Source of the DNA: a virus
Virus record (IMG/VR): IMGVR_UViG_3300018080_000116
Coordinates: 62,001-126,000 of that record
Direction: 5' to 3' (one strand)
DNA: 64,000 nt
A program made the translations under genes and the position numbers. Every line of letters starts with the position of its first letter. Position 1 is the first letter of the stretch. Below, piece by piece: positions 14,386 to 39,749 of the stretch. The notes under the pieces are model-generated. The model was given only the letters and a program-made list of their open reading frames with translations. It was not told the origin of the DNA and did no database searches.

Positions 14386-14410
14386 CACGTGGTTGGCCTG
14401 GACGGTTTTA

Positions 14411-14430: not shown

Positions 14431-14447
14431 CGGCACCGCCGAGCCGG

Positions 14448-14476: not shown

Positions 14477-14477
14477 C

Positions 14478-14511
14478 GAACCTTTCGGCGTCGAGCCGTG
14501 TATAAGGGGGC
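14478..14511 (+). promoter_or_regulatory. promoter-like element P6
   Basis: GAACC at 14478-14482, 18-base spacer, TATAA at 14501-14505, then GGGGGCGA. Precedes the gene at 14562. Confidence 0.7.
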
Positions 14512-14561
14512 GATCCGGCTGGTGCCGGGTGGCACCGGCCACTGACAAGGAGGCCCAAGCC

Positions 14562-14705: not shown

Positions 14706-14983
14706 TCGTACCGAACGGCGACGAGGCGTATGCCCTGTCCGAGCGATATGACGAGCCGAGCGAGGCTGATCTGTTCGACGTGGACGATGCCCAGGCGATC
14801 AAGGCCAGCAACCGGCAGGCCAAGGTGGGCACCAGGGTGATCTGCCCGACCTGCGGTTGCCGGTTCACGAAGCGATCCTATCAGCACGTGTTCTGCCGGT
14901 CCAAAGGCCGAGGGAACTGCAAGGATCGGTTCCACAACCTCGCCAGCCCGGAGCGACTGGCGAGGGCCAGGGCGTGGTCCTAG
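14702..14983 (+). CDS. zinc-finger protein, 93 aa
   Basis: ATGA overlap with the previous gene. Acidic N-terminus, then ICPTCGCRFTKRSYQHVFCRSKGRGNC, a CxxC-x15-17-C-x7-C cluster that resembles zinc fingers used to recognise nucleic acids or other proteins in phages. Its stop codon overlaps the stop of the leftward gene 14980-15156 (CTAG). Confidence 0.65.
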   Translation: MIVPNGDEAYALSERYDEPSEADLFDVDDAQAIKASNRQAKVGTRVICPTCGCRFTKRSYQHVFCRSKGRGNCKDRFHNLASPERLARARAWS

Positions 14984-15156
14984 TACATGAACCGCTGCGC
15001 CTTGATCTTCGCTTGCAGGTCGAGGCGGCGATCTTCGTCGCCGTCTTCGTCCATCCGCATTAGATCGTCAACCTCGTGCCACTCCAGGCCGCAGTAGGTG
15101 CAGCCGAGGTCACGGAAGTCAACTGGCAGGGGTTGGCAGCATCGTGGGCAACGCAT
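14980..15156 (-). CDS. zinc-ribbon micro-protein on the opposite strand, 58 aa
   Basis: The only leftward gene in the rightward block. ATG at 15156 with CGGAGAATACA upstream. The product starts MRCPRCCQPL and has CTYCGLEW, so two CxxC knuckles 14 residues apart form a zinc ribbon; the rest is acidic then basic (DEDGDEDRRLDLQAK). The stop shares CTAG with the convergent gene. Likely a small regulator or binding protein. It has no visible promoter of the P type. Confidence 0.65.
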   Translation of the reverse strand: MRCPRCCQPLPVDFRDLGCTYCGLEWHEVDDLMRMDEDGDEDRRLDLQAKIKAQRFMY

Positions 15157-15253
15157 TGTATTCTCCGGGTTAGAGTGTTGGGCGAGCGACCTGCCCGCCC
15201 TTCACTTCCCTTTAGGCACCTGCGGCGGCAAGAAATAAAAAGAAAATTAGACC

Positions 15254-15287
15254 GAACCTTTTTTGATCTTGTGTGTATAAGGGGGCG
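15254..15287 (+). promoter_or_regulatory. promoter-like element P7
   Basis: GAACC at 15254-15258, 17-base spacer, TATAA at 15276-15280, then GGGGGCGAAC. Unlike other copies it precedes an RNA-type segment, not an open reading frame. Confidence 0.7.
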
Positions 15288-15474
15288 AACGGTGGGTGAG
15301 CAGCCCCGCAAGTCGCAGCAAGGCACGCTGCGAGCCGTCCCAGGCCGACCCGCTGACGAGGCAAACAGGCCATTCACTGATCCCCGCTCGTCTCAACCGT
15401 TATCAGTGTGGGTTGAGTGGTGTAAGGCGCAAGCCAGGGGGCACACCCAACATGGCGTTGGGAGGTACGAGGGT

Positions 15475-15543
15475 TCGATCATGGTGTAGTGGTAGCACAC
15501 CGGCGTGCAGCCGGAAGTATGGGTTCGAGTCCCATTGATCGTC
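15475..15543 (+). tRNA. tRNA-like gene with atypical anticodon arm (Cys GCA or Ala TGC)
   Basis: T arm is perfect (ATGGG-TTCGAGT-CCCAT, 15519-15535). Acceptor arms TCGATCA (15475-15481) and TGATCGT (15536-15542) pair at six of seven positions. D arm GTGT...GCAC has the usual GG in its loop. The anticodon arm is odd: CCGGC-GTGCA-GCCGG gives a five-base loop, or CCGG with a seven-base loop CGTGCAG that lacks U33. Total is 69 bases, about two short. No CCA is encoded (TCTTA follows), which fits the CCA-adding enzyme at 47486. Could be a functional oddity, a tRNA mimic or a decayed tRNA. Confidence 0.55.
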
Positions 15544-15551
15544 TTATCTGC

Positions 15552-15710
15552 GGTACGACTGCTGGCCCAGAGAGGTCAGCAGGTAGGGAATAGAGTCCTG
15601 TAGGAGTGCGAGATCGCTGCTGTGTACGAGGTGGGGAACCCGGCACGAGTGGCCCTTTGAGCCTACAGGTGAATACCGGAGAACGTCAGCCCCGTGGCGT
15701 TGAGCGTACC
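15552..15710 (+). ncRNA. candidate structured RNA
   Basis: Nested inverted repeats: GGTACG (15552-15557) with CGTACC (15705-15710) closes the unit; inside are TGCTGGCC (15561-15568) with GGTCAGCA (15575-15582), and CCTGTAGG (15597-15604) with CCTACAGG (15662-15669). Lies downstream of P7 and the tRNA-like gene. I do not recognise it as RNase P, tmRNA, 6S or SRP RNA. Based on base pairing only. Confidence 0.35.
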
Positions 15711-15869
15711 AACGAAACATGATTCGCTGCTTTGTGGTGTAATGTCAGCACTCTCGCCTTGAGTACCCGAGTCCGAGCCCCTGGTCATGCGGAGGGCAGA
15801 CGACTCGGCGAAATTGGCGGGGGGTCCGGGTGCATAGTCCCGGCTGAGCGGCGTTTTAAAAATTATGCC

Positions 15870-15902
15870 GAACCCTTTTCAGTTTGGCGTGTATAAGGGT
15901 GC
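15870..15902 (+). promoter_or_regulatory. promoter-like element P8
   Basis: GAACC at 15870-15874, 17-base spacer, TATAA at 15892-15896, then GGGTGCGAAC. Drives the gene at 15936. Confidence 0.7.
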
Positions 15903-15935
15903 GAACATCACGCACCTTTTAACGGAGTGGTCCCC

Positions 15936-16298
15936 ATGCTGAATCGAAAGATTGCCCTTTACGTCCCTGGCACAACTGACGTGAACGTGCCCGCCCCCGA
16001 GCAGCAGGCAGCCGCCGTTGTCCATGCTCTCGAACAGTTCGCCGAGTGGTTCGGTGGGGCGACCGTGATCGACGGTCAAGGGGCGTGGATGAGCGACGAA
16101 CACGGTCTCGTGGTCGAGCCCGTCCGCATCGTCTACTGCTTCACCGACGCCGAGGGATTGGCCAAGCATCTGAGTGAAGTCAAGCTGTTGGCCCGGCACG
16201 TCTGCCGAGCCATGTCCCAAGAGTGTGTCAGTCTGGAAGTGGCTGGCGAGTTGCAGTTCATCGAAGTCGCCGAGGTCGCCGACGAGAAGGTGGCCTAG
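15936..16298 (+). CDS. conserved-type small protein, 120 aa
   Basis: ATG at 15936 with ACGGAGTGGTCCCC upstream, preferred to the GTG at 15927. The sequence has the cadence of a known uncharacterised family of mobile elements: HALEQFAEWFGGATVIDGQG, AWMSDEHGLVVEPVRIVY, then a helix with HVCRAMSQECVSLEV. The middle phrase recalls DUF3574-type proteins (ferredoxin-like fold), a distant guess. Followed by a strong terminator. Confidence 0.6.
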   Translation: MLNRKIALYVPGTTDVNVPAPEQQAAAVVHALEQFAEWFGGATVIDGQGAWMSDEHGLVVEPVRIVYCFTDAEGLAKHLSEVKLLARHVCRAMSQECVSLEVAGELQFIEVAEVADEKVA

Positions 16299-16308
16299 TG
16301 TCCCATCT

Positions 16309-16340
16309 GAGCCCCCTGGGCATCGCCCAGGGGGCTCTTT
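16309..16340 (+). terminator. intrinsic terminator, 13-bp stem
   Basis: Arms 16309-16321 and 16325-16337 (GAGCCCCCTGGGC and complement), loop ATC, followed by TTTGAG. Confidence 0.7.
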
Positions 16341-16370
16341 GAGTGTCCCCTGACCAACGGAGCCAAAACC

Positions 16371-16634
16371 ATGAAGTCGCACGCACGCCCCCGTCTGGCA
16401 GCCGAGACGATTCCGCCGTTGACCGGTGCCTCGGTGATCCAGCCCGGCCACCCGTACTACACTCAGTACGTCAAGTGGCTCGAAGCCCGCAAGGCCGAGC
16501 TAGGCCCCGAGGCAGCCGTGAGCAACAAGCGCAAGGGGCGTTTGTTCTTGGCAGCCCATCCGCACCTGAAGCGCTGTTGGGAAGGCGTGATCCTTCACGC
16601 CCGCCGAATCGAGGCCGAGAAAAAAGCAGCATAA
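16371..16634 (+). CDS. small basic protein, 87 aa
   Basis: ATG at 16371 with AACGGAGCCAAAACC upstream. Basic protein (VKWLEARKAEL, SNKRKGRLFLAAHPHLKRCWEGVILHARRIEAEKK). No promoter element lies between the terminator and the start, so it may depend on read-through. Nucleic-acid binding is plausible from charge only. Confidence 0.6.
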   Translation: MKSHARPRLAAETIPPLTGASVIQPGHPYYTQYVKWLEARKAELGPEAAVSNKRKGRLFLAAHPHLKRCWEGVILHARRIEAEKKAA

Positions 16635-16638
16635 GACC

Positions 16639-16671
16639 GAACCCTTTTTCGTTTCGTGTGTATAAGGGGGC
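16639..16671 (+). promoter_or_regulatory. promoter-like element P9
   Basis: GAACC at 16639-16643, 17-base spacer, TATAA at 16661-16665, then GGGGGCGAAC. Starts five bases after the previous stop; leads to the gene at 16770. Confidence 0.7.
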
Positions 16672-16769
16672 GAACCGAGCAGAACGAAAGACCGGAACAA
16701 GACTAAACAGGTTTGGTTATTCCTGGTTCTGCTCTTTCCTAACCCCCATTCCTTACGGAGACCCGGATC

Positions 16770-17504
16770 ATGTTGCGAAGCGTCGAGAAGCCCAATTCCC
16801 CCGTCCTGTCCGACCCCTTGTTCATCATGGCCATCGTGCCGATCCTCGCCGCCTTCCGCCGCATGGGCGAGCGGATCGCCGATCTGGTGGCCGTCGAAGA
16901 TGACAACCTCGAACCCGTGTTCGACAAGCGGATCGAGCAAAACAACCTGGGCGTGGTCGTCGATGGCCTGTCGCCCGTGGTGATCGAGACCGCCCGCTAT
17001 TCGATGCGAGTCGGCGGCAAGCTGGTTGTCAGTGCCGAAGCCAAGTCCCTGCTGGTCGATGGCGAGTTGTACGACTTCGACATGACTTGTGCGTGGCATC
17101 CCCAGGTCGAAGTCGAAATGCAGGCCCTCTTGAAGCGCCTGAACGTCCCGATCCTCTTGTTGATGGCAGGTCTCGGCTACAACCTGCGGCCCCGCCACGA
17201 GGTCATTCCCGGCCTGCTGGTGATCCACCTGGGCCAGAAGAAGGTCGAGCCCAATTCCGCCGCACAGGCCCCCTTCCGGCCCGCTGAGGCCGCTTCCGAT
17301 GGCCCGAGCGTCATGTACCCCGGCCACCACAACGAGGGCTACCAGCCCGCCCAGGAGCCCGTGCGTTGCTCCTGCCAGGACGACAACCCCTCGTGGGACG
17401 GCCCGAGCAACTGTGCCGGTTGCGAGAACTTCGCCATCTGCCACCCGGCAGCCGCCGCCGAGGCCAACGTGTTCGTGGGAGAGCCGCTTCGCAAGGCCGC
17501 ATGA
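16770..17504 (+). CDS. hypothetical protein with C-terminal Cys cluster, 244 aa
   Basis: ATG at 16770 with TTACGGAGACCCGGATC upstream. Residues 15-35 are hydrophobic-helical, then an alpha/beta body (VVIETARYSMRVGGKLVVSAEAKSLLVDGELYD). The C-terminal 50 residues carry CSCQDDNPSWDGPSNCAGCENFAIC, a six-Cys cluster that may bind zinc or an Fe-S centre. No family recognised. Confidence 0.65.
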   Translation: MLRSVEKPNSPVLSDPLFIMAIVPILAAFRRMGERIADLVAVEDDNLEPVFDKRIEQNNLGVVVDGLSPVVIETARYSMRVGGKLVVSAEAKSLLVDGELYDFDMTCAWHPQVEVEMQALLKRLNVPILLLMAGLGYNLRPRHEVIPGLLVIHLGQKKVEPNSAAQAPFRPAEAASDGPSVMYPGHHNEGYQPAQEPVRCSCQDDNPSWDGPSNCAGCENFAICHPAAAAEANVFVGEPLRKAA

Positions 17505-17516
17505 TCCGGCCCGGCT

Positions 17517-17556
17517 TGCCTGCCGCCGCCCGGCGCAGCGGCGGCAGGCAGCCATT
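17517..17556 (+). terminator. strong hairpin, 13-bp stem, AT-rich tail
   Basis: Arms 17517-17529 and 17538-17550 (TGCCTGCCGCCGC and complement), then GCCATTTATTTT. Just upstream of P10. Confidence 0.6.
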
Positions 17557-17573
17557 TATTTTAGAATTAGACC

Positions 17574-17606
17574 GAACCTTTGCCCGCCATCTGTGTATAA
17601 GAGGGC
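17574..17606 (+). promoter_or_regulatory. promoter-like element P10
   Basis: GAACC at 17574-17578, 17-base spacer, TATAA at 17596-17600, then GAGGGCGAAC (one G changed to A). Precedes the gene at 17644. Confidence 0.7.
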
Positions 17607-17643
17607 GAACAAAGTTTCTGTCCCCAACCTTACGGAGAACCTC

Positions 17644-18420
17644 ATGTCCAACGCACCCATCCAGTACGTGACCGAGAACGAGTTGATCGGCATTTTGACC
17701 CGGATCAACACCGCCCAACCCTTCGGCGTGGTCGCCCTGACCATGCCCTCGTGCTTCTCGACTCGCAGGGGCGGCAGCCGCAAGAAAACGGAGCCGCTCT
17801 GCCCGCCCGTGATGAAGCGGCAGCGTGTCAGCGGCATCAGCAACTTCGATTACCTGCGCAGCCGCAACAACGACAACGCCCGTGAGTGGTCCCGGCAGGT
17901 CGAAGCGCTGAAGGCCGAGGGCAAGACCAAAGAGGCGGCAGACCTGGAACAGCAGGGGCCGGAACAGCACGAGTTGGGCAGCCGCAGCGACGACCGTGAG
18001 CGGATCGAGGGCACCGTCCTGGTCCGCCGCCCGTCCACCGGCCACGTCTACCTGCAAATGATGATCCCGACCGGCCATCACCCCTCGTGGCCCAAGGGTC
18101 GCCACGAAACGAGCTACTGTTACCTGCCCGATCATCGTGGCCTGCTGCTGGAAAGCTACGCCAAGGGCAAGCCGAGCAAGGCCCATGCCGAGGCGTACCC
18201 CGAGCACGTGTTGGCAGCCATACCCGCCGTCGAGTACAGCCTGGAAGGCGATGGCGATGAAAGCCTCGCCGACTGGCTCAAGCCGTACAAGCGGCGAGAC
18301 GACGAGCCGCACGACTTCGACTACCGTGAGTACCGCTTCGATCATATCCTCGAAGTGCGTGCCGAGGGCATCCGCTACATCGTCCGCCGTGGCGAGGAAG
18401 CCCAGGCGAAGACCGCATAA
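17644..18420 (+). CDS. hypothetical protein, 258 aa
   Basis: ATG at 17644 with TTACGGAGAACCTC upstream. Contains KRQRVSGISNFDYLRSRNNDNAREW and a central beta-type region ERIEGTVLVRRPSTGHVYLQMM. Several His- and Arg-rich loops. Soluble, family unknown. The gene ends at a textbook terminator. Confidence 0.65.
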   Translation: MSNAPIQYVTENELIGILTRINTAQPFGVVALTMPSCFSTRRGGSRKKTEPLCPPVMKRQRVSGISNFDYLRSRNNDNAREWSRQVEALKAEGKTKEAADLEQQGPEQHELGSRSDDRERIEGTVLVRRPSTGHVYLQMMIPTGHHPSWPKGRHETSYCYLPDHRGLLLESYAKGKPSKAHAEAYPEHVLAAIPAVEYSLEGDGDESLADWLKPYKRRDDEPHDFDYREYRFDHILEVRAEGIRYIVRRGEEAQAKTA

Positions 18421-18434
18421 CGGTTTGGGGACCG

Positions 18435-18476
18435 GCCCGGCTGCGTGATAAGGAGCGCAGCCGGGCACTCTTTTTT
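18435..18476 (+). terminator. intrinsic terminator with six-T tail
   Basis: Arms 18435-18445 (GCCCGGCTGCG) and 18456-18466, loop of 10, followed by ACTCTTTTTT. One of the clearest rho-independent terminators of the window. Confidence 0.8.
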
Positions 18477-18484
18477 GCACCGCA

Positions 18485-18499
18485 AGTTCGCATGTATAA
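18485..18499 (+). promoter_or_regulatory. promoter-like element, class II (AGTTCGCATGTATAA)
   Basis: Same AGTNC-x-x-ATGTATAA pattern, directly behind the terminator and 12 bases before the gene at 18512. Confidence 0.5.
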
Positions 18500-18511
18500 C
18501 AGGACACGACC

Positions 18512-18754
18512 ATGCTGAAATCAAGCGACCCCAACAACACCGAAGACCTTGTTTCGATCTTCAACGAGTGGGCCGAAAACACGTTTGTGTGGCCCGCTGG
18601 CCACGAGCCCCAAATGACATCGTTTTTTGAGCACGGCCAGTGGTGGGTGCAAGACATCAACAGCGATGCCACCTGGAGCGTCGTAGATGCGGAAGGTGGC
18701 GATGCCGTCGCCGGTTACAGTTTCGAGCAGATCACCGATGGGGAACTGGCATGA
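18512..18754 (+). CDS. hypothetical acidic protein, 80 aa
   Basis: ATG at 18512 with AGGACACGACC upstream. Trp-rich acidic protein (FNEWAENTFVWPAGHEPQ, EHGQWWVQDINSDATWSVVDAEGGD). First of three coupled genes; function unknown. Confidence 0.65.
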   Translation: MLKSSDPNNTEDLVSIFNEWAENTFVWPAGHEPQMTSFFEHGQWWVQDINSDATWSVVDAEGGDAVAGYSFEQITDGELA

Positions 18755-19014
18755 CACTGGACCCCACCGACGAACGCCGAGCCGAACACGGCCACCTAAC
18801 ACCAGCCCAACATGAAGCCCTGATGGAAGCCTGTGTGCAGGTGTATATGGCGGCGGATGGCATCGAGACCGTCCCCGAGTATGCCGCCCGAGCCGCCCTG
18901 GCAGGCGAAGGGCCAGACACGCTCGCCGCCATGCTGCCCGACGACACCGATCACTGCCGCCGCCTGGGCGTCAACTTCGATCCCGAAACCGGAGAGGAAT
19001 GGCCCGATGAATAA
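18751..19014 (+). CDS. hypothetical protein, 87 aa
   Basis: ATGA overlap with the previous gene. Helical (LTPAQHEALMEACVQVYMAADGIETV), ends with DPETGEEWPDE. Unknown family. Confidence 0.65.
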   Translation: MTLDPTDERRAEHGHLTPAQHEALMEACVQVYMAADGIETVPEYAARAALAGEGPDTLAAMLPDDTDHCRRLGVNFDPETGEEWPDE

Positions 19015-19357
19015 CGTAGACAGCAGCCACGTGCAGATCACCGTCACCTGCGAGCGCTGCGGCCACACCTGGGACGTTGAAGACTATGATGCCCTGAGTG
19101 TGCAGGCCGCTGAGCAGGCCGCAAGGGAAGCCGAGTGCCAGAACTGCAACGCCACGTCCCGGCAGGTGAGGTTCTACAACATCAAGTGGGACACCACCGA
19201 CGACGATCACCCGGACGGCCAGGACGTGGATCTGCCCGACGACGTGACCCTCGAAGTCGATGGCGACGTGGACCTGGACACCGAGGGTGCCGACGTGCTC
19301 AGCGACAAATACGGCTGGTGCGTGTTCAGCTTCGACTATGAAGAGACCGAACCTTAG
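19007..19357 (+). CDS. zinc-ribbon protein with acidic tail, 116 aa
   Basis: Eight-base overlap with the previous gene (ATGAATAA). Starts with VQITVTCERCGHTWDVEDYDALSVQAAEQAAREAECQNC: two CxxC knuckles separated by about 26 residues, the layout of rubredoxin-like zinc ribbons. The C-terminal half is very acidic (DGQDVDLPDDVTLEVDGDVDLD). Its last codons contain the GAACC box of P11. Confidence 0.65.
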   Translation: MNNVDSSHVQITVTCERCGHTWDVEDYDALSVQAAEQAAREAECQNCNATSRQVRFYNIKWDTTDDDHPDGQDVDLPDDVTLEVDGDVDLDTEGADVLSDKYGWCVFSFDYEETEP

Positions 19358-19382
19358 CGCCCCTTCGTGTGTATAAGGGTGC
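19349..19382 (+). promoter_or_regulatory. promoter-like element P11, overlapping a gene end
   Basis: GAACC at 19349-19353 lies inside the coding sequence of the preceding gene (its last sense codons read GAA CCT), with an 18-base spacer, TATAA at 19372-19376 and GGGTGCGAAA. Drives the gene at 19397. Confidence 0.7.
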
Positions 19383-19396
19383 GAAAGGAAACCACC

Positions 19397-19762
19397 ATGC
19401 AAGAGATCAGCGCCTTTGCCATTCTGATCGCCAGCGACGGCGAGCCCATTCGAGTCCACCCCCAGATGGCCGGTGTGAAAACCGGCTTCGCCCGGATCGG
19501 CAACCCCTACTTCGACGGCGATCCCGATTGGCGACTCAAGGACGGCAACACCGTCATCGAGTGCCAACCCAGCGACTCCAGGGCGATCCCCGTGGCCGAT
19601 GCCTACCAGAAACTACGAGCAGCCTGGGAGGCGGAAGCGGCTGAACTCCAGGCCGAGGAAGAGGCGTGGGAACGTGAGTGGGCCGAGCGCAACGAACAAC
19701 GCAGGTGGGACGAAACCATCGGCCACCTGTACCTCATCCAAGATCGTTTAATGGGAATCTAA
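19397..19762 (+). CDS. hypothetical protein, 121 aa
   Basis: ATG at 19397 with AAAGGAAACCACC upstream. N-terminal half beta-type (AFAILIASDGEPIRVHPQM), C-terminal half a long charged helix (AEAAELQAEEEAWEREWAE). Family unknown. Single-gene cassette between P11 and P12. Confidence 0.65.
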   Translation: MQEISAFAILIASDGEPIRVHPQMAGVKTGFARIGNPYFDGDPDWRLKDGNTVIECQPSDSRAIPVADAYQKLRAAWEAEAAELQAEEEAWEREWAERNEQRRWDETIGHLYLIQDRLMGI

Positions 19763-19764
19763 CC

Positions 19765-19797
19765 GAACCTTTTGCGGCGAACTGTGTATAAGAGTGC
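19765..19797 (+). promoter_or_regulatory. promoter-like element P12
   Basis: GAACC at 19765-19769, 17-base spacer, TATAA at 19787-19791, then GAGTGCGAAA. Two bases after the previous stop. Confidence 0.7.
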
Positions 19798-19811
19798 GAA
19801 AGGACGCCACC

Positions 19812-19964
19812 ATGCTTTACTCAGTCCCCTACCGACGAACGGACGGCAGCCTCGACAGCTATTTTCTGTTCACCAACAGACAGCCCCCGGAAGGGGCCAG
19901 CCCCGTTCTGATCCCCAACAAGGAACCCAAACATGAGCCAGCCGACTTATCGAAGGCTGCCTGA
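19812..19964 (+). CDS. micro-protein, 50 aa
   Basis: ATG at 19812, ten bases after AAAGGACGCC, close behind P12. Product MLYSVPYRRTDGSLDSYFLFTNR... then Pro-rich. Its last 32 bases overlap the next gene in another frame. Function unknown. Confidence 0.55.
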   Translation: MLYSVPYRRTDGSLDSYFLFTNRQPPEGASPVLIPNKEPKHEPADLSKAA

Positions 19965-20358
19965 CGGCAGCGTGACCGTGGATGCACCCGGCACCTGCGG
20001 CAAGCCGTTCGCCAACGTCCTGCGGATCGTCGAAGACGACAACGCCAACCCCGGCATCAAGATCACCACGTCCAGCGGCATCGTGGGTAGCAACCTGCTG
20101 CGGCAGGTGCTCGCCGACCTGGAGTCTGGCGATTACCTGCTCAAGATGACCGAGGGCGGACCCGAGCCCCCTCGCCCCTCGATCACCGTCCGGTGGGGCA
20201 GCGAGAGCACCCGCAAAGACAACCCCGACCTGGAAGACGGCGACAAGTTCGAGTTCGACACCGAGGCCGAGGTCAACGCCTTCACCGAAGCACTCGCCGC
20301 CGCCGATGGATGGGCCGAGTGGGAGATCATCGAACCGGAGGACGAGACCACCAACTGA
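19933..20358 (+). CDS. hypothetical protein, 141 aa
   Basis: ATG at 19933 with CAAGGAACCCAAAC upstream. Beta-rich beginning (YRRLPDGSVTVDAPGTCG), acidic second half (DNPDLEDGDKFEFDTEAEVNAFTEAL). Family unknown. Followed by a strong terminator at 20486. Confidence 0.65.
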   Translation: MSQPTYRRLPDGSVTVDAPGTCGKPFANVLRIVEDDNANPGIKITTSSGIVGSNLLRQVLADLESGDYLLKMTEGGPEPPRPSITVRWGSESTRKDNPDLEDGDKFEFDTEAEVNAFTEALAAADGWAEWEIIEPEDETTN

Positions 20359-20485
20359 ACACCACCACCGCAGCCCGGTGGCACCTAACCAAAGCCCGCA
20401 CCCAAGGGTGTGCGTGAGCAGGGGGTGAGGCCGAACACATAAAGCCTCATGGGCCTGCAACCAGTACAACCTCTTTTCTCCTGAG

Positions 20486-20520
20486 CGCCCACCGGCCCGA
20501 GGCCGGTGGGCGTTTTTATT
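20486..20520 (+). terminator. intrinsic terminator with T-run
   Basis: Arms 20486-20497 (CGCCCACCGGCC) and 20501-20512, loop CGA, followed by TTTTTATTTT. Very clear. Confidence 0.85.
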
Positions 20521-20533
20521 TTCAAATTACACC

Positions 20534-20567
20534 GAACCCCAGGCAGGCGAGCCGTGTATAAGGGGGC
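20534..20567 (+). promoter_or_regulatory. promoter-like element P13
   Basis: GAACC at 20534-20538, 18-base spacer, TATAA at 20557-20561, then GGGGGCGAAA. Last copy of the series; drives the gene at 20583 with a very short leader. Confidence 0.7.
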
Positions 20568-20582
20568 GAAAGGAACAATGCC

Positions 20583-27369: not shown

Positions 27370-27679
27370 CTCGTTGTCTCCTTGCCATTTGGGCCAGCAA
27401 CTTGCCTATGATCGGAAGTTCTTCTTCCAGCTTATCGAGCTTCTTGTCATTCTCGGCCTGCCGTTCATCCATCTTCTCTTTCCATTGTTGGTCAATGAAG
27501 TGGGTGGCCTTGGCCAAGCAGGCTTGATATTCCTTCTGCGTGATGATCCCCTTGGACATCAAAGCAATGACAAGAGCATAGTGGTTGATTAGGTGGATCT
27601 GATTCGTGCCGATGAGCACTTCATTGTAATTCGGACCCTGGATCAGTTGACGAAGTGTGTCCTTCGTTTCGTCACTCAT
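27347..27679 (-). CDS. hypothetical helical protein, 110 aa
   Basis: ATG at 27679 has GGGAGCT directly upstream, better placed than the ATG at 27688. Long helices with a charged coiled coil near residues 60-90 (WKEKMDERQAENDKKLDKLEEEL). Overlaps both neighbours by a few bases. Function unknown. Confidence 0.65.
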   Translation of the reverse strand: MSDETKDTLRQLIQGPNYNEVLIGTNQIHLINHYALVIALMSKGIITQKEYQACLAKATHFIDQQWKEKMDERQAENDKKLDKLEEELPIIGKLLAQMARRQRDADGEGA

Positions 27680-28188
27680 AGCTCCCATGTGTCTAATACC
27701 TCATTATCTTTTTCAGCCGCTTTTTCAAAAAGCTTCTTCATCCGTTCTTTGGCCGGTTCCCAACCCTTGCGCTTATGGAATGTCTCAACTAAGGTGGAAA
27801 ACACATGCATGTTGGGGTGAAAGCGACCTTCCCAAAAGCGAGAGGGGTTTTCTTCGTTCAAGCAGTTTTCGATAGCCGCTGCCGTCGCCGCCGATCTTGA
27901 GATCCCCGCTTGACAATGAACCATTATAGTGCCAATGTCATCTCTTTCCCAGAACGATTCTACGAAGTCCCAGATCTTGTGTGCATCATCTTCTGAAAAA
28001 AGACTGCCATGAGCAGGAGACATGGGAGCATCAATATCGCCAAAAGAGCACTGTAGCAGGCCAAGACGCTTAACGCCACTAATTTTTGGATGTTCATCGA
28101 AACTGTCTATGCTAATACAGACCCAGGGTTCGTCACACTCGAATTCCTTCGCTTTGCTCTTAGAGAGTACCACCAAGTTCTTTTTCAT
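27676..28188 (-). CDS. dual-specificity / tyrosine phosphatase-like protein, 170 aa
   Basis: Contains HCQAGISRS (His91 to Ser99), the C-x5-R catalytic loop of protein tyrosine phosphatases (Cys92, Arg98), preceded by a hydrophobic strand (IGTIMV). Asp residues in the FGDIDAP segment could provide the general acid. Length and layout match small viral and bacterial dual-specificity phosphatases. ATG at 28188 with AAAGGATAAACGG upstream. It may dephosphorylate host proteins or RNA 5' ends; substrate unknown. Confidence 0.8.
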   Translation of the reverse strand: MKKNLVVLSKSKAKEFECDEPWVCISIDSFDEHPKISGVKRLGLLQCSFGDIDAPMSPAHGSLFSEDDAHKIWDFVESFWERDDIGTIMVHCQAGISRSAATAAAIENCLNEENPSRFWEGRFHPNMHVFSTLVETFHKRKGWEPAKERMKKLFEKAAEKDNEVLDTWEL

Positions 28189-29344: not shown

Positions 29345-30176
29345 TCACGTTCACGGGTGGCATCAATTCCAGGCGGAACGTCTTCGTGTTGAGATACATG
29401 GGCACTTCTGGATGTGCGCCTTTCCAGCGATTCTTCAATACGCAGCATCGAAACACATGGGTATTCCAAGAAACGGGAGTGTGGTCATAACGCATTTGGA
29501 GAACAACCGAAGGCATGTAGGCCAGCGGGCGATAATCCACAGCCGCCACCCCGAACTCATCATTCAATTTTTGTGTTGTAATCGAAAGAACAATGGCACA
29601 ATCGTGATCGTATGCCATGCCAACCAGTTGATGCAGCGTGTCCATCCTGCGTTTGGCTCGATAGTTGTAGGGCGTCTCCCCAGTTTGATACCAATTTCGG
29701 AAAGGAAGGGTTCCGAAGCTCTCGTCGAAAAGGATGTCGTGATTGCCCAACGCCCGATGCCAATTAGACTCGACATCTTGAGGCATGTATGAGGCGGGCA
29801 GCAGAGAGTAATCACCAAAATAATCAGTGGGGTAATACCACAAGTGCCCCTCAAAAGGGAGCGTGTTGGCACCCCTGTGAGCCAACAGGTGGGCCGTGCC
29901 CTGTTCAGGCACAAATCCCGCAGAACTTTTCTTGGCGGCATTGAGTGCCATGGTTCGCATGAGAGCCGATTTGCCAGAACCGGCTTTGCCCATGACAACT
30001 GAGACGGTTCCTCGGCGAAGACCGCCTCCTAACGCCTCGTCGAGCATTGGAAATCCGGTTGTAATAAGCTGTTCATCCAGCTTGACGATCTTCTTTTTCT
30101 TTTCCGCCACCAGAAGCGTCGGTGCCGCCACAAACGTCCCGATCACTCCCAACATCTGCCGTCTGTTTAGATTCAT
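29322..30176 (-). CDS. RecA-superfamily ATPase with Tat-type leader, 284 aa
   Basis: Start taken at ATG 30176 (MNLNRRQMLGVIGTFVAAPTLLVAEKKKK...), which overlaps the preceding gene as ATGA. Residues 5-24 look like a twin-arginine signal. The body is a RecA/DnaB/KaiC-type ATPase: FPMLDEALGGGLRRG, Walker A GKAGSGKS (63-70), Walker B-like HDILFDES, then a RecA-type strand AIVLSITTQ. Such ATPases drive helicases, recombinases or packaging aids in the cytoplasm, so a Tat leader is paradoxical. Either the leader has another meaning here or the protein is membrane-tethered. Confidence 0.7.
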   Translation of the reverse strand: MNLNRRQMLGVIGTFVAAPTLLVAEKKKKIVKLDEQLITTGFPMLDEALGGGLRRGTVSVVMGKAGSGKSALMRTMALNAAKKSSAGFVPEQGTAHLLAHRGANTLPFEGHLWYYPTDYFGDYSLLPASYMPQDVESNWHRALGNHDILFDESFGTLPFRNWYQTGETPYNYRAKRRMDTLHQLVGMAYDHDCAIVLSITTQKLNDEFGVAAVDYRPLAYMPSVVLQMRYDHTPVSWNTHVFRCCVLKNRWKGAHPEVPMYLNTKTFRLELMPPVNVNERGRRA

Positions 30177-30781
30177 TGCAAGTTCTCCCAGTGTGCTTCC
30201 ATGCGAAAGCTGCCCTTCTCGCACATGAAGTCCATGCGGTCAATGTAGGATCGAGGATGACCGCTCGCCCAATACCAATACGACGGGTAATCAACATGCG
30301 CCCACACATCGGCATCGGGAGAGCCATGAAGCGGACTGCCCTCCCATATGGCAAAGCCCCTCTGGCCCGACAGCCACAGGGTAGCATCTGGATTTTCTCG
30401 CAGATGATAGAAATTCCCCTTCCCCTCTTTCCACGCAGGCTTAAAGGCCATCATGTGGGAGATTGTGAAAGGGTGGGCCATGACCCACTTCACCGGGCCT
30501 TTTTCTTTCCAAATGATCTCGCACAAATGCCAGTAAAACCCTTCAATGCGTTCGTTCACCAACAGATGTTCGGACTTGACATTGCCGTAGTGTAAATGCT
30601 TGGGCGCATCATGCAGCATGTCGAACGTCCGCACATCATGCTGGGGAATATGTCCCGGTTCGGGTTCCAGGATCTTTACTTCGTGTCTTCCTGGCTTGAG
30701 GGGAAGAAAAGCAGAAGCAGGCAAGACCACTGCGGCTCCCGCCGCAGTGGTCATTTTCAAAAAGTCCCTTCGATTATGCAT
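30173..30781 (-). CDS. Tat-leader protein, 202 aa
   Basis: Starts MHNRRDFLKMTTAAGAAVVLPASAFLP: twin-arginine RRDFLK, hydrophobic core and an ASA-type cleavage site near residue 24. The mature part is rich in His and Trp (HHxx-like HGSPDADVWAHVDYPSYWYWASGHPRSY), which could bind metal. Family unknown. The leader DNA is almost identical to that of the next gene upstream. Confidence 0.65.
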   Translation of the reverse strand: MHNRRDFLKMTTAAGAAVVLPASAFLPLKPGRHEVKILEPEPGHIPQHDVRTFDMLHDAPKHLHYGNVKSEHLLVNERIEGFYWHLCEIIWKEKGPVKWVMAHPFTISHMMAFKPAWKEGKGNFYHLRENPDATLWLSGQRGFAIWEGSPLHGSPDADVWAHVDYPSYWYWASGHPRSYIDRMDFMCEKGSFRMEAHWENLQ

Positions 30782-31283
30782 GGGGTCTCCTTTTTTGCTG
30801 TGCGGTCATAATGCAGACGTTGTTTTCCATGGCGACCCTTCTCCACATTTCCATTTCGGAGGGGAGTTCTCTCAAGTCAGAGAAAGACAGGGACTTCACG
30901 ACATCTCGCTTGGTCATGGGTTGACCAGCGATCAAAAGTCTGGCTTCGGGCCATGTGGCTTTTGCCACAGCAACCTTTGATACCAGATTGCGGGGCCCGT
31001 AGATGAACCAGACCTTCATGGGGTAGCTCATGTTCTCGTCGGCTTCGATGGAATCTTCTACCGCTCTCATAAAATCCCATTCCCGTTCTCGGTCTCTGAA
31101 GATCATTGGAACCCGAACGAGATCGGTTCCATCACCTTTGGCATCGATTTGACAATCATTGCTTTGTGTGGAAACGTAGTAGATTTCGCTCGCCTGTTTC
31201 ACTGGCGTGGCGAAAGAGAGGGGCAAGACCACTGCGGCTCCCGCCGCAGTGGTCGTTTTCAAAAAGTTTCTTCGGTTAATCAT
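30720..31283 (-). repeat. 62-bp leader-coding direct repeat
   Basis: Copies at 30720-30781 and 31222-31283 differ at about six positions, with the first 33 bases identical. Each contains a perfect 12-bp hairpin (arms GACCACTGCGGC and its complement, loop TCCC; 30725-30752 and 31227-31254). The copies encode the Tat-type leaders of two adjacent but otherwise unlike proteins. Confidence 0.7.
30774..31283 (-). CDS. Tat-leader protein, 169 aa
   Basis: ATG at 31283 with GGAGGAAACA upstream, also ATGA-coupled to the preceding gene. Starts MINRRNFLKTTTAAGAAVVLPLSFATP. The rest has an alpha/beta layout with RVPMIFRDREREWDFMRAVEDSI and ends in a strand ENNVCIMTAQQ, like the last core strand of RecA-fold proteins, but no Walker A is present. 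Possibly a degenerate partner of the ATPase at 29322; this is a guess. Confidence 0.6.
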   Translation of the reverse strand: MINRRNFLKTTTAAGAAVVLPLSFATPVKQASEIYYVSTQSNDCQIDAKGDGTDLVRVPMIFRDREREWDFMRAVEDSIEADENMSYPMKVWFIYGPRNLVSKVAVAKATWPEARLLIAGQPMTKRDVVKSLSFSDLRELPSEMEMWRRVAMENNVCIMTAQQKRRPHA

Positions 31284-33791: not shown

Positions 33792-34346
33792 TTAATCGGT
33801 AAGAGCGTTCAATTCTTCCGGCCATTTTGATTTTCCGCTTATCGCAATATCGGCCAGATCACCCAGGAGATCCCATTGGACGTTGAAGGTGTCACCTTCT
33901 CGGAGGTACGTGTCCAGTTCTCGGAAAGATCTCAACACCAGAGACTCTCCATCTGGAAAGGGGCTTTTTTTATAGAACAGTTGGAGGGACAGGCGGGACA
34001 CGTGAAAGAGAGAGTCACGGGCAACGAAGTGGCCCGTGACTCTGAAGGTTGCGTCTTCGTAGACGACTTTAGTGTCATCCAGGATGTAGCAAGCAGTTGC
34101 GGGCTTGCCGAGGTGGATCATTTGTCTTGAGCCGACCGAGCGTCTGCCCGTGATGTCCATGAAAGCCGTGAAGCTTTCGGCCAGTCGTTGTTTGGCGTCA
34201 TCGAGTGATGAGTGGGAGACGACGAGTCGATCTTTGGGCGGCTCGTCGATACCGAAGTTATCGTCAGTGAGCAGCGAAAAGGGGATGAATGCTGCGGATG
34301 CCCCAGCGGCGGCTGTTTTCAGGAAGTTCCTGCGGGTGTGCGACAT
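33792..34346 (-). CDS. Tat-leader protein, 184 aa
   Basis: Starts MSHTRRNFLKTAAAGASAAFIPFSLL, a clear twin-arginine signal. The mature part begins with a KDRLVVSHSSLDDAKQRLAESFTAFMDI helix and then beta-rich repeats. ATG at 34346 with CGGAGTTAATA upstream. Family unknown. Confidence 0.65.
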   Translation of the reverse strand: MSHTRRNFLKTAAAGASAAFIPFSLLTDDNFGIDEPPKDRLVVSHSSLDDAKQRLAESFTAFMDITGRRSVGSRQMIHLGKPATACYILDDTKVVYEDATFRVTGHFVARDSLFHVSRLSLQLFYKKSPFPDGESLVLRSFRELDTYLREGDTFNVQWDLLGDLADIAISGKSKWPEELNALTD

Positions 34347-34382: not shown

Positions 34383-34415
34383 AGAGCGACTGCGGCATCC
34401 TGCCGCAGTCGCTCT
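34383..34415 (-). terminator. intrinsic terminator, 15-bp stem
   Basis: Arms 34383-34397 and 34401-34415, loop TCC. Reading leftward the hairpin is followed by TCGTTTCTCC. It ends the lipoprotein unit at 34480. Confidence 0.65.
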
Positions 34416-35660: not shown

Positions 35661-36223
35661 CCGTCTTGCACCTTTGAGATTGCGTGGACTCCAAGCAGTT
35701 TTACATTCTTTGACACGACAGTGACATATCGCTCTTCTTGGCAGGGGGTGACATCGAAAAGTTCTCTCTCGGTGTCGGCTTGAACGGCGGTGCGGAAGAC
35801 AATATCTTTGGGCATGCCTCTTTTGGGCAACACCAATTCCCTGAGTCGTCGGCCTTCGGGGGTGTCGAGGCATTGGATGTCGCAAATAACCCAATCCTCG
35901 TGGGTGTCGCAATCATGAAGAAACTCGAATTTTGTAGCAACGTGAGAGATTTCGCTGAGACGGATCTTACAATCTTTGGGCATGCCGATTTGGCCCCACA
36001 CGCCTTCTTTGGGAATTCGGTCAACCATTTCCTCGATGGCTTTCCGGGGGTAAATGTTCATGTTCTTGGTGGGGCGGTCAAGAACAAGCGTCCGGACGTG
36101 TACGAGTTTGTCGGGAGGTTTCGCCACGGCTTCAACGACCGGTGGCGTGTCCTCGAAAGAGATGGGGATCGCTGCGGCGGATGCGGCTGCCGCTGCCGTT
36201 TTCAAAAAACTCCTTCTATCCAT
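35654..36223 (-). CDS. Tat-leader protein, 189 aa
   Basis: Starts [28 protein letters not shown] at ATG 36223. Mature part has [30 protein letters not shown] and a beta segment [19 protein letters not shown], with [25 protein letters not shown] at the end. The phrase [17 protein letters not shown] recalls phage structural or prohead-protease type proteins (S78-like start 'YPRKAIEEM...'), but catalytic residues are not evident. Overlaps CsrA by eight bases. Confidence 0.6.
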
Positions 36224-36422
36224 CGTCTTCCCGGCCTCCTTGATCTGCCCGCTGGATTGCTTCCCAGACTTCCCTGCGGTGAACGCACTTCCACTCCTTG
36301 GGAGCGTTGATGCCGAGTCGGACTTTATCGCCTCGGATTTCAACGACCACGATGTCAATTACGTTGTCGGGATCGGGGCCAACAACAATGCTTTCATTTT
36401 TCTTTCTGGACAACACGAGCAT
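36216..36422 (-). CDS. csrA: CsrA carbon-storage regulator homologue, 68 aa
   Basis: [47 protein letters not shown] match CsrA/RsmA from end to end, including the RNA-contacting N-terminal strand (LSRKxxE) and the C-terminal VHRxEVxE strand. CsrA dimers bind GGA in hairpin loops near ribosome sites and block translation or alter mRNA life. ATG at 36422 with AAGGAGATTCCC, itself a GGA site. Encoded among Tat-leader genes; may adjust host or phage mRNA translation. Confidence 0.92.
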
Positions 36423-36435: not shown

Positions 36436-37071
36436 TTAACAGAGTTCGTTAATGAGAGCGTCCTTCAGTTCTCCATCGAGCTTCAGGGGTTCGCCAAGGG
36501 GTTGGAAACCACACACATGAACGGCGTAGAATTCGTCAAGGGCAGCTTCGTCAAAACCACGGAAGCAATCAATCATTTCGCCGAAATACAAGTCCATCGT
36601 AAGCAGTTCCCAACCGCTCTTCGTGAACTGACTTCCAATAGATACTGGATGAACGTCGGCGAGACATTCTTGTCTGTTGTTGGCGAAGTCCCAGAGCGTT
36701 ACGATCCTGGAATCAACAACATAGTCCAGCTTTCCACCTTCTCGCTTAAACGGCGTGGGCTTCGACCAATCCCATAGATCTTGTGACAGAACTTTGGCGT
36801 CCTTGAGAGTGAAAGTCAGCCGCAATGATCCGACGAGGCCCCGTGCATCCCCATTGAAGCGCCGGTAAGTCCAAAAGAAATTGGGAATCCAATTGATGCC
36901 TTCGATGTGAAGTCCCAGTTGGTCGTCACGACCATAAACGTCGCCGTACTTGGTAATGGGTTTGGGTTTCGGCTTTGGAAGAACGGGTTCGTAAGAAATC
37001 AGCGGAGCCACAATCGGCAATGACAGAGCGGCGGCAGTGTTCCTCAAAAAGTCACGTCTTGTGGCGATCAT
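36436..37071 (-). CDS. Tat-leader protein, 211 aa
   Basis: ATG at 37071 with GAGGAGAAAGAAAG upstream gives [29 protein letters not shown]. Then a Pro/Lys linker ([16 protein letters not shown]) and an acidic alpha/beta body with [23 protein letters not shown]. Many aromatic residues. Family unknown; predicted to be exported. Confidence 0.65.
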
Positions 37072-37375: not shown

Positions 37376-37927
37376 TTAACAGATGGCGGTCGGTGCGGCA
37401 CAACGGGGGTGAAGGTATATTCCTTCGACCTTTTGTAGAGTGGATTCGGGAATGACCCCAACATTGATCCACAGTTGGTTTTTGAGCGTGCGAACCAAAA
37501 CCAACTTAACCGCTCCATAGCAAACCCAATGTTCGTCGTCGATTCGTCTCTCGTAACAAACAGCATCGCTTTTCCGGAGGAACGCTTTGATGTTTTTCTC
37601 GTAGAATTCAATGTCGGTTGGCTCGCCCGTGGCGAAGTCGGTCCCACGGACACCTTCCCAGGGGGTTTCGTCAAAAAGCACATCCCCGTTGATGAGGTAT
37701 GGCCCCATCATTTCGATCACAGGCAGGAGTCCAGCGGGAGTCATCTCCACCCTAATGACACTGCCGGGTTTGGAAGGTTCGCCCCTTTTCAACTCCTCAT
37801 ACTCCATATCCCACTTCCAATCGGGGTATCTCAATCGGTCGGTATCGGTATAGGCTTCGGCGGCGACGGGTATGGCAGCACCAGCAAGTGCGATTGGGGC
37901 GGCTTTGAGAAAAGTGCGTCGTTCCAT
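37376..37927 (-). CDS. Tat-leader protein, 183 aa
   Basis: ATG at 37927 with GGAGGAATCC upstream gives MERRTFLKAAPIALAGAAIPVAAEAYTDTD, a twin-arginine signal with an AEA cleavage site at about residues 23-25. The mature part is charged with VIRVEMTPAGLLPVIEMMGPYLINGDVLF and the end has LWINVGVIPESTLQKVEGI. Related in layout to the protein at 35654 (both have a VIRVEM/VRTL strand followed by a DVLFDE / DCKI segment), which suggests a family. Role unknown. Confidence 0.65.
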   Translation of the reverse strand: MERRTFLKAAPIALAGAAIPVAAEAYTDTDRLRYPDWKWDMEYEELKRGEPSKPGSVIRVEMTPAGLLPVIEMMGPYLINGDVLFDETPWEGVRGTDFATGEPTDIEFYEKNIKAFLRKSDAVCYERRIDDEHWVCYGAVKLVLVRTLKNQLWINVGVIPESTLQKVEGIYLHPRCAAPTAIC

Positions 37928-37938: not shown

Positions 37939-38523
37939 TCAATGTTCATGAAAACACATATCACAAGCGTCCTGCCAACAATAATGACCGCAAGCCTCGC
38001 AGTCATTTGGGCACTCAAACATGCCCACAGCGATTGGAAGTGAGTTAATCGCCGCAACTGGAATCCCCATTGTAGGTTGTGGGAAATCCGTGTCAAGAGA
38101 TTCTCGCAGAATCATGTTGGGCAGTTCAGCCAACTTCAAGAGGGGTTTAAGAAGATCCCTCCGTCGAGTGGTTGACCGGAATAGCGTATCAGGTGTATTC
38201 CTGACAATCTCTATGACTTTTTCAACATACTCTTCGGAGTAGTAATCCCCTCCGGAGTGCCAACGAAAGAAATCTGGCTGGAATCTTTTCAATTCGGCTA
38301 GTACCTTCTCTACGAAGTCTTTCCGCTTGGATGCACGGTAGCGTGCAAGGGTTGCCTTGCGCACCGAGTCCATTTTGAAATTATTCCGGCGAGCGTAGCA
38401 GGCTGGCTTGCCATTACGGCCCTTGAGGCACCAACTCGTCGGCTTGCAGGTTAGATGTGGTGGGAGATTGAAGATGTAGACTTTCGCCCCCATCTTGCTG
38501 TTGCCCTTGATGAGCAGATTCAT
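37939..38523 (-). CDS. GP88-family protein, 194 aa
   Basis: Opening GNSKMGAKVYIFNLPPHLTC-x4-WC-x9-ACYARRNNF matches the GP88 domain of mycobacteriophage proteins, which has conserved Cys residues around residues 26-42 and a SGGDYYSEEYVEKV segment. A second Cys-rich cluster is at the end (CPNDCEACGHYCWQDACDMC). Family function is unknown; a metal or Fe-S role is plausible. ATG at 38523 with GGAGAAGTACG upstream. Overlaps the upstream lipoprotein gene by 110 bases. Confidence 0.75.
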   Translation of the reverse strand: MNLLIKGNSKMGAKVYIFNLPPHLTCKPTSWCLKGRNGKPACYARRNNFKMDSVRKATLARYRASKRKDFVEKVLAELKRFQPDFFRWHSGGDYYSEEYVEKVIEIVRNTPDTLFRSTTRRRDLLKPLLKLAELPNMILRESLDTDFPQPTMGIPVAAINSLPIAVGMFECPNDCEACGHYCWQDACDMCFHEH

Positions 38524-38783: not shown

Positions 38784-39509
38784 TCAGACGGATTCATAGC
38801 GGGTGCAACAGTGTGGCCGAAAATCATAGACTGCGAAGGGCTCGAACTTGTGTGGATCGGATCGAGGGGGAAACTCAATTTCTCTAGTCAAGAACATACG
38901 ACCCCAGCCCCACTTACAACGACAGCTTGATCCGCTGGGCCACGTGATCTCTTTGCCCTCCGGGTGAAAACAAACAACCCTGTTTTCGTAAGGCAGGATT
39001 ACCTCACGCATGTTGGTTTGCGAAACGAACTTCCCATGGTCTTTGTATTCACTCCAGCGACTATGGACATACCCTTCGATGGCCGAGTCAAGCCAGTCGA
39101 AAAGATACTTGTCATCCCCACCATCTTTATGCAGTTTGCGGAAGTAGGAGCGGATTCTTCCCCAGTGAGAGGGAACCACGGGCAGGCCATAGGCTTCGTG
39201 TAATTTACACCACTCACACTCGGGCACCAACTCTGCATAGTCCTTGCCCGGCATGCGATGCAATCGAAGGTTTTCTTCCGTGCAGGCATCCACCCAGAAT
39301 GTTCCCCGGCAGAGTTTGCAGCGGTACTTAGCATCCGGGCCGTCACCGAACATGAACTCAAAGTGTCTCCATCCGGACACCGATCCGGACACTTTGTCCG
39401 GTTTCTTGTCCGGATTGGCCTTAATAATCGGTGTATTAAGTCCTAGCGGAACGACACAAGTAGCGGCGGCTGTCGCCGCCGATACTTTAAGGAAGTCACG
39501 TCTACGCAT
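38784..39509 (-). CDS. Tat-leader protein with Cys clusters, 241 aa
   Basis: Starts MRRRDFLKVSAATAAATCVVPLGLNTP at ATG 39509, AGGAGCTTACA upstream. The body has CKLCRGTFWVDAC and CEWCKLHEAYG, so three pairs of Cys at about residues 63-103 could form a zinc module; the end has SCRCKWGWGRMF and RPHCC. A zinc-binding exported protein would be unusual. Function unknown. Confidence 0.65.
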   Translation of the reverse strand: MRRRDFLKVSAATAAATCVVPLGLNTPIIKANPDKKPDKVSGSVSGWRHFEFMFGDGPDAKYRCKLCRGTFWVDACTEENLRLHRMPGKDYAELVPECEWCKLHEAYGLPVVPSHWGRIRSYFRKLHKDGGDDKYLFDWLDSAIEGYVHSRWSEYKDHGKFVSQTNMREVILPYENRVVCFHPEGKEITWPSGSSCRCKWGWGRMFLTREIEFPPRSDPHKFEPFAVYDFRPHCCTRYESV

Positions 39510-39518: not shown

Positions 39519-39749
39519 CTATGCTGCTGCGGCCTGCACCGCCATGATGAACCGTTGGTCTTCTTCAAGCATCATTTCTTTAACGGCTCGTTCCCTCATC
39601 AAATCAAGTAGGTCTTGGTGGGCTTGACCAAGACGGCGGACCTTGGGTTGGGGTGGAACTGGATCTTTGGGCTGCGGCGTGCAACCCAAGGGAACAACCG
39701 CCGCCGCCATGCTGGCGGCGACGGTTTTTAAAAAACTTCGACGGTTCAT
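39519..39749 (-). CDS. Tat-leader lipoprotein, 76 aa
   Basis: Starts MNRRSFLKTVAASMAAAVVPLGCTPQPKD: twin-arginine plus lipobox PLGC (Cys 23), so a Tat-dependent lipoprotein. The mature part is a Pro linker and one helix (LGQAHQDLLDLMRERAVKEMMLEEDQRF). First of the Tat cluster in transcription order. A leftward TAGATAATG motif lies 29 bases before its start (39778-39786). Confidence 0.7.
   Translation of the reverse strand: MNRRSFLKTVAASMAAAVVPLGCTPQPKDPVPPQPKVRRLGQAHQDLLDLMRERAVKEMMLEEDQRFIMAVQAAAA

What the first reader, a model, noticed from the sequence alone, without database searches (positions are those of the whole stretch)
30720..31283. Leader-coding DNA copied between neighbouring genes, with a perfect hairpin inside
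Seen: 62-base copies at 30720-30781 and 31222-31283 differ at about six positions while the genes behind them differ completely. Both copies contain a perfect 12-bp inverted repeat with loop TCCC that lies inside the leader coding sequence. Inference: leaders are swapped between genes by recombination at the DNA level, which would explain how one leader type reached nine genes. The hairpin could aid exchange, or act in mRNA as a brake near the start codon.
Basis: partly seen in the sequence, partly recalled or inferred. Interest (0 to 1): 0.65.

Follow-up and report, generated by a model that had tools for sequence, protein, structure and literature searches.

The report
Phage genes sharing copied export tags
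Nine neighbouring genes in a large bacterial virus carry a twin-arginine export tag at their start; in one adjacent pair the DNA for the tag alone was copied from gene to gene, and in this virus and distant relatives such tags sit on pieces of virus head-building proteins, a combination I have not seen described.

Summary
30720-30781 and 31222-31283 match at 56 of 62 bases and contain a perfect 12-bp hairpin (loop GGGA in the mRNA). Similarity falls to chance just before the start codon and 5 nt after the hairpin, and the two bodies are unrelated. Fifteen of 18 shared codons are identical (5.5 expected; 0 of 5000 resamplings), so this is a real leader-only DNA copy. The leader is a twin-arginine (Tat) signal peptide. 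Nine Tat-leader genes lie in a 10.4-kb accessory island. Only this record, of about 83 related phage records searched, exceeds the TIGR01409 cut-off.

The wider inference fails. The other leaders show no excess codon identity (78 against 71.5, P=0.21), and the hairpin occurs only in this pair. A bigger pattern emerged. In this phage and two relatives, every Tat-leader body with a clear phage relative is a paralogue or fragment of a head or packaging protein: protease twice, portal, terminase. The protease copies have lost catalytic residues.

Most likely the leaders send these proteins to the host Tat translocase or membrane, perhaps as interfering decoys (inferred, untested). The hairpin is a chance palindrome or a local RNA element. 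A link to a phage CsrA gene in the island is suggestive only.

The parts
30720..30781 (-). Copied leader DNA, copy 1: start codon to codon 21 of g2 (MHNRRDFLKMTTAAGAAVVLP)
31222..31283 (-). Copied leader DNA, copy 2: start codon to codon 21 of g3 (MINRRNFLKTTTAAGAAVVLP)
30725..30752 (-). Perfect 12-bp hairpin, mRNA loop GGGA, inside the g2 leader
31227..31254 (-). Identical 12-bp hairpin inside the g3 leader
30173..30781 (-). g2: Tat leader + 178-aa body with no known relative
   Evidence: TIGR01409 26.3 bits (cut-off 16.7); no relatives
30774..31283 (-). g3: Tat leader + 145-aa body with no known relative; its stop overlaps the g2 start
   Evidence: TIGR01409 26.9 bits
29322..30176 (-). g1: Tat-like N-terminus (MNLNRRQMLGVIGTFVAAP; not among the listed family matches) + RecA/KaiC/DnaB-type P-loop ATPase
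33792..34346 (-). g4: Tat leader + body with no known relative; 5' UTR has hairpin 34383-34415 with GGA loop
   Evidence: TIGR01409 20.8 bits
35654..36223 (-). g5: Tat leader + prohead-protease-like body lacking the conserved His (GELDHP to GQIGMP) and Ser
   Evidence: TIGR01409 22.0 bits; phrog_207 E=2.5e-4; alignment A1; clade profile F7
36436..37071 (-). g6: Tat-like leader ([20 protein letters not shown]; 12.9 bits, below the 16.7 cut-off) + body with no known relative
37376..37927 (-). g7: Tat-like leader (MERRTFLKAAPIALAGAAIPVAAEA, possible AEA cleavage site; 16.3 bits, just below 16.7) + body with no known relative
38784..39509 (-). g8: Tat leader + Cys-rich body with no known relative
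   Evidence: TIGR01409 16.7 bits (at cut-off)
39519..39749 (-). g9: Tat leader + 52-aa tail; very weak major-head-protein match
   Evidence: TIGR01409 21.3 bits; phrog_2522 E=0.041
36216..36422 (-). csrA homologue overlapping the g5 start; possible regulator of the island
   Evidence: PF02599 E=7e-20
34383..34415 (-). 15-bp hairpin with GGA loop (GCAGGAUGC) in the 5' UTR of g4; matches the CsrB-type CAGGAUG element
   Evidence: motif from PMC7652899

Best explanation
The leader is a twin-arginine (Tat) signal peptide. Shown: nine Tat-type leaders lie in one 10.4-kb minus-strand accessory island of a large contractile-tailed phage, and a 46-62-bp stretch coding for the n- and h-regions of one leader was copied once between the adjacent genes g3 and g2 without their bodies. 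Also shown: in this phage and two relatives, Tat or Tat-like leaders are joined to paralogues or fragments of head/packaging proteins (prohead protease twice, portal, terminase). Inferred: the leaders bring folded phage proteins to the host Tat translocase during infection, for export or membrane tethering, and the bodies act as interfering or scavenging versions of head/packaging proteins. Inferred: the g2/g3 copy arose by short-tract gene conversion, template switching, or leader-primed recombination. Because both copies are in register at the start codon, recombination between them gives an intact in-frame leader-body gene, so leaders can serve as homology handles for swapping bodies. The hairpin is most simply a by-product of alternating Ala/Thr/Val codons that travelled with the copy; a local RNA role is possible.
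For: Tat identity: TIGR01409 at or above the curated cut-off in six of nine proteins scanned whole and in seven of eight matches in the six-frame search; PF10518 matches; no convincing leader in the rest of the 138-kb record. Island: flanks are collinear with relative G001, where about 14 kb of the window corresponds to about 2.3 kb. Leader-only copy. Rarity: only this record is over the cut-off in two searches of related phage records, 49 and 35 records including itself; a leader tblastn in 50,697 phage records found only one hit, which reads as a bacterial solute-binding lipoprotein. Head/packaging pattern: g5 and LR756511 L184 match the clade protease profile, LR756511 L089 the portal profile and G032 L093 the terminase profile, all above the best shuffled or reversed decoy, supported by PHROGs. 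g5 and L184 share the loss of the protease His (GELDHP to G-GMP). In-frame recombinant.
Against: No export, cleavage or membrane localisation can be tested here; few leaders have an obvious AxA site. g1 is a P-loop ATPase, and ATP is absent from the periplasm, so export would inactivate it. Most of the nine bodies have no recognisable relative, so the head/packaging pattern rests on g5 plus three leader proteins in relatives. The L184 leader (MINRRCFIAECAYGL) is degenerate. No second genome with the island exists, so the age and direction of the g2/g3 copy cannot be read.
Confidence: 0.62

Rival explanations
1. Whole-gene tandem duplication: g3 was duplicated with its leader and one body was later replaced or diverged beyond recognition, so nothing was swapped as a leader.
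For: The genes are adjacent and overlap by 8 nt; a tandem origin is the simplest way to put two identical leaders side by side.
Against: The leader keeps 15/18 identical codons while the bodies show chance-level DNA identity and no protein match. Divergence cannot explain such a step; the body would have to be replaced outright, which is again leader-body reshuffling.
Confidence: 0.2
2. The hairpin is a selected RNA element in the island's mRNAs: its GGGA loop (with the GGA of the SD) is bound by the CsrA homologue encoded in the island, giving coordinated translational control.
For: csrA (36216-36422) overlaps the g5 start. GGA in a stable hairpin loop within 70 nt of the start: 7/31 island genes against 8/181 others (P=0.002; GGA ranks first of 64 trinucleotides; 4/9 Tat genes, P=0.0017, or 0.011 counting g2/g3 once). 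The g4 5' UTR hairpin reads GCAGGAUGC. A 12-bp stem arises in only about 0.4% of synonymous versions of the leader.
Against: Idea formed after seeing the loops. SELEX-type CsrA sites favour stems of four or fewer contiguous pairs, an ANGGAN hexaloop and an upstream ACA (PMC7652899); the 12-bp GGGA hairpin fits none of these. Five Tat genes have no such loop.
Confidence: 0.15
3. The hairpin stalls DNA replication and causes the template switch that copied the leader (hairpin-aided exchange).
For: The copied tract ends 5 nt beyond the hairpin, so a stem edge lies near one breakpoint. The genome holds 38 perfect stems of 11 bp or more.
Against: A single event; no other leader pair shows copying; the other hairpins, mostly intergenic (31/38), were not seen to carry neighbouring copied tracts.
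Confidence: 0.1
4. Pure functional constraint: Tat leaders look alike because TatC recognises them, and the DNA similarity is convergent.
For: True for the other seven leaders, whose shared codons are at the synonymous expectation.
Against: For g2/g3: 15/18 identical codons, 0/5000 resamplings.
Confidence: 0.02

Closest known systems
Bacterial twin-arginine (Tat) signal peptides (TIGR01409, PF10518; consensus S/T-R-R-x-F-L-K)
   Same: RRxFLK motif, short charged n-region, A/V/T/G-rich h-region, N-terminal position
   Different: Carried by nine genes of one phage island; bodies include a RecA/KaiC-like ATPase and an inactive prohead-protease paralogue rather than redox or secreted enzymes; no export shown
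T4-type head/packaging proteins (prohead protease gp21, portal gp20, terminase gp17 families)
   Same: g5, LR756511 L184 and L089, and G032 L093 match the clade's own protease, portal and terminase profiles
   Different: Partial, extra copies preceded by Tat-type leaders; protease copies lack the conserved His, and g5 also the Ser
CsrA/RsmA-regulated mRNAs
   Same: GGA in hairpin loops near start codons, csrA gene in the same island
   Different: Stem far longer and loop shorter than the SELEX/NMR consensus; binding not tested
Palindromic elements inserted in coding genes (Rickettsia palindromic elements; from memory)
   Same: In-frame palindrome in coding DNA
   Different: Only two copies in the record, and both moved with flanking leader DNA, not as an independent element

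Membership tests
Tat signal peptide | Twin-arginine motif RRx[FLM]L near the N-terminus | tested here: met
   All nine
Tat signal peptide | Match to curated model TIGR01409 at or above cut-off | tested here: met
   g2, g3, g4, g5, g8, g9 at or above 16.7 bits (g7 16.3, g6 12.9, g1 not among the listed matches); 7 of 8 in the six-frame search
Tat signal peptide | Signal peptidase site (AxA) after the h-region | tested here: inconclusive
   By eye: clear in g2 (ASA) and g7 (AEA), unclear in most others
Tat signal peptide | TatC-dependent export of the folded body | not testable with these tools
   Needs a reporter fusion
T4-type prohead protease (g5 body) | Profile similarity to the head maturation protease | tested here: met
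   phrog_207 E=2.5e-4; clade profile F7, 18.9 bits, above all decoys
T4-type prohead protease (g5 body) | Conserved active-site His and Ser | tested here: not met
   GELDHP to GQIGMP; SSRG to FRTA
CsrA-binding site (leader hairpin) | GGA in a hairpin loop near the start codon | tested here: met
   Loop GGGA at CDS nt 41-44 of g2 and g3
CsrA-binding site (leader hairpin) | ANGGAN hexaloop on a short (four or fewer contiguous bp) stem | tested here: not met
   GGGA tetraloop on a 12-bp stem; criteria from PMC7652899
Intrinsic terminator (leader hairpin) | U-tract immediately after the stem | tested here: not met
   Followed by UUGCC; not listed by the terminator scan
Full-length paralogues (g2, g3) | Homology along the whole gene | tested here: not met
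   Chance identity outside nt 0-61; no body-body blastp match

The most novel reading that the evidence does not exclude
Large T4-like phages use Tat-type leaders as a mobile address tag: leader DNA is moved onto extra, truncated or inactivated copies of head and packaging proteins (protease, portal, terminase) and other proteins, sending them to the host Tat translocase or inner membrane, where they interfere with the assembly of competing phages (or anchor assembly), with leader homology allowing bodies to be exchanged and a phage CsrA regulating the set.
Probability: 0.2. Interest if true: 0.88.

Novelty: new variant of a known kind. Interest (0 to 1): 0.6.

Why it matters
Lytic phages are not known to me to use the host Tat pathway on this scale, and four literature searches turned up no title or abstract reporting it. 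If Tat leaders are repeatedly put on pieces of head and packaging proteins, this would point to an unrecognised way in which phages address folded proteins to the membrane or periplasm, possibly to block competitors. The g2/g3 pair is a clean example of a signal peptide moving between genes at the DNA level in a virus.

Tried and rejected
Relatives sharing the island: viral scans with g2, g8 and g5 found none. Exact hairpin in IMG/VR: none. Leader DNA in phage records: none. Leader-like coding DNA in 84,980 genomes: two degenerate patterns gave zero hits although the looser one finds both window copies, so neither donor nor host was identified. Structure prediction of g2 and g3 from single sequences gave pLDDT 37 and 33; too poor for a fold search, so none was run. 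A hint that g2 resembles an HK97-type capsid domain came only from reading the sequence and was dropped. Rfam: nothing. PADLOC: only generic ATPase hits for g1. Terminator reading of the hairpin: no U-tract. A hit in MT836623 reads as a bacterial solute-binding lipoprotein, not a phage leader. The first run of the GGA-loop test mislabelled two genes and was redone.

Full report
WHAT IS THERE. The two 62-nt copies named in the finding are real and in register. On the minus strand each starts at the ATG of a gene (g2, 30781..30173; g3, 31283..30774). They differ at six positions. Identity over nt 0-61 is 56/62, against 2-5 of 15 per block upstream and mostly 2-6 of 15 downstream. Both contain GACCACTGCGGC-GGGA-GCCGCAGTGGTC, a perfect 12-bp stem of -25.6 kcal/mol. 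The stop codon of g3 overlaps the start of g2 by 8 nt.

IS IT A DNA COPY? Tat-type leaders resemble each other as proteins, so I compared codons, not residues. At the 18 positions where g2 and g3 share a residue with synonymous choices, 15 codons are identical; synonymous resampling by local codon usage gives 5.5, and none of 5000 resamplings reached 15. The bodies show no DNA or protein similarity. This is a leader-only copy. The same test on the 28 leader pairs that leave out g2 gives 78 identical codons against 71.5 expected (P=0.21), so there is no DNA-level trace of one leader having spread to nine genes; those leaders are old, independently captured or convergent. Divergence within the copy is uneven (5/16 then 1/46, P=0.003), so the clearly copied tract may be nt 16-61. 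Because the copies are in register at the start codon, recombination between them would leave an intact in-frame leader-body gene.

WHAT THE LEADER IS. Nine genes between 29322 and 39749 begin with RRx[FM]L followed by an A/V/T/G-rich stretch. Six are at or above the curated cut-off of TIGR01409 when the whole proteins are scanned; seven of eight matches are over it in a six-frame search of the record. No convincing leader lies elsewhere in the 138-kb record. These are twin-arginine signal peptides by sequence. Export itself is untested. g1 has the weakest leader and is a RecA/KaiC/DnaB-type ATPase.

THE PHAGE AND ITS RELATIVES. The record is a fragment of a contractile-tailed phage with distant relatives among huge phages such as LR756511.1, 595 kb. 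A baseplate protein brings in 176 related IMG/VR loci. Two searches covered 49 and 35 records including this one; only this record passes the TIGR01409 cut-off. In G001 the genes flanking the island are collinear, and about 14 kb of window corresponds to about 2.3 kb, so the Tat genes sit in an accessory island. A short Tat-like ORF (MERRNFLAMLSMSAVLPFCGE) lies in that G001 gap just before the phosphatase gene. Weaker or single Tat-type leaders occur in G032, G020 and LR756511.

AN UNEXPECTED PATTERN IN THE BODIES. I built 70 protein families from the relatives and searched the Tat-leader bodies with them, using shuffled and reversed bodies as decoys. Four bodies score above every decoy, and all four hit the clade's head/packaging genes, which lie together in G001: g5 and LR756511 L184 (prohead protease), LR756511 L089 (portal) and G032 L093 (terminase). 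PHROGs agrees (phrog_207, phrog_213, phrog_5989). In both protease copies the conserved GELDHP has lost its His (GQIGMP, GELGMP), and in g5 the SSRG Ser is lost as well. Two pseudo-protease relatives without a twin-arginine leader exist (L185, L186), so leader and body are separable in evolution. g9 has a very weak major-head-protein match (E=0.041) that I do not count.

THE HAIRPIN. It exists only in g2 and g3; other leaders have perfect stems of at most 8 bp. Given the peptide, 12 bp arises in about 0.4% of synonymous sequences, and with about eight independent leaders inspected this is a few per cent. The record holds 38 perfect stems of 11 bp or more, 31 of them outside called genes (my own simple gene caller). 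The leader hairpin lacks a U-tract. A CsrA homologue lies in the island, and GGA in a hairpin loop near the start is commoner in island genes than elsewhere (7/31 against 8/181, P=0.002; first of 64 trinucleotides). The test was made after seeing the loops, and the 12-bp GGGA hairpin departs from the known CsrA site (PMC7652899). I rate this as a lead.

HOW IT MOST LIKELY WORKS. Shown: Tat-type leaders, a leader-only copy, leaders joined to head/packaging paralogues. Inferred: the leaders bring folded proteins to the host Tat machinery, ending in the periplasm or tethered at the membrane. T4-type prohead assembly starts at the inner membrane (established knowledge, from memory), so membrane-addressed pieces of portal, protease or terminase could interfere with competing phages. 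This last step is conjecture.

WHERE I STOPPED. The host is unknown, no close relative carries the island, most of the nine bodies are unassigned, and single-sequence structure models were too poor to use.

Noticed in passing
window 8418-20577, + strand: A repeated promoter-like element, CCGAACC(C)TTT..N..GTGTATAAGGGGGCGA, in front of many plus-strand genes (13 GTGTATAAG on the plus strand, none on the minus; 10 full matches). Probably the phage's own promoter class.
   Followed up: partly
whole record (L003-L007 and window): 38 perfect hairpins with stems of 11 bp or more and loops of 3-8 nt in 138 kb, 31 outside called genes; relative G001 is similarly rich (34 per 100 kb) while G005 and G022 have 8-11 per 100 kb.
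   Followed up: partly
window 7344-7889: Three near-identical hairpins (CCCACTCGCC..GGCGAGTGGG) within 550 bp, outside called genes.
   Followed up: no
window 36216-36422: csrA homologue overlapping the Tat gene g5; CsrA genes also occur in relatives G005, G032, G034 and LR756511.
   Followed up: partly
window 58989-62184: Tandem coding repeats with periods of about 234 and 252-264 bp, all multiples of three.
   Followed up: no
L184:1357-2250, L089:1348-1608, L093:1495-2190: Tat or Tat-like leaders on a pseudo-protease, a portal fragment and a terminase fragment in two other phages.
   Followed up: yes
L106:17336-17536: Short Tat-like ORF directly upstream of a dual-specificity phosphatase gene whose window homologue (27676-28188) has no leader.
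   Followed up: partly
window 12920-13951 and 37939-38523: An ArdC-type protein (PF08401 with PF18818) and a Gp88-like protein (PF17338), the latter inside the Tat island.
   Followed up: no
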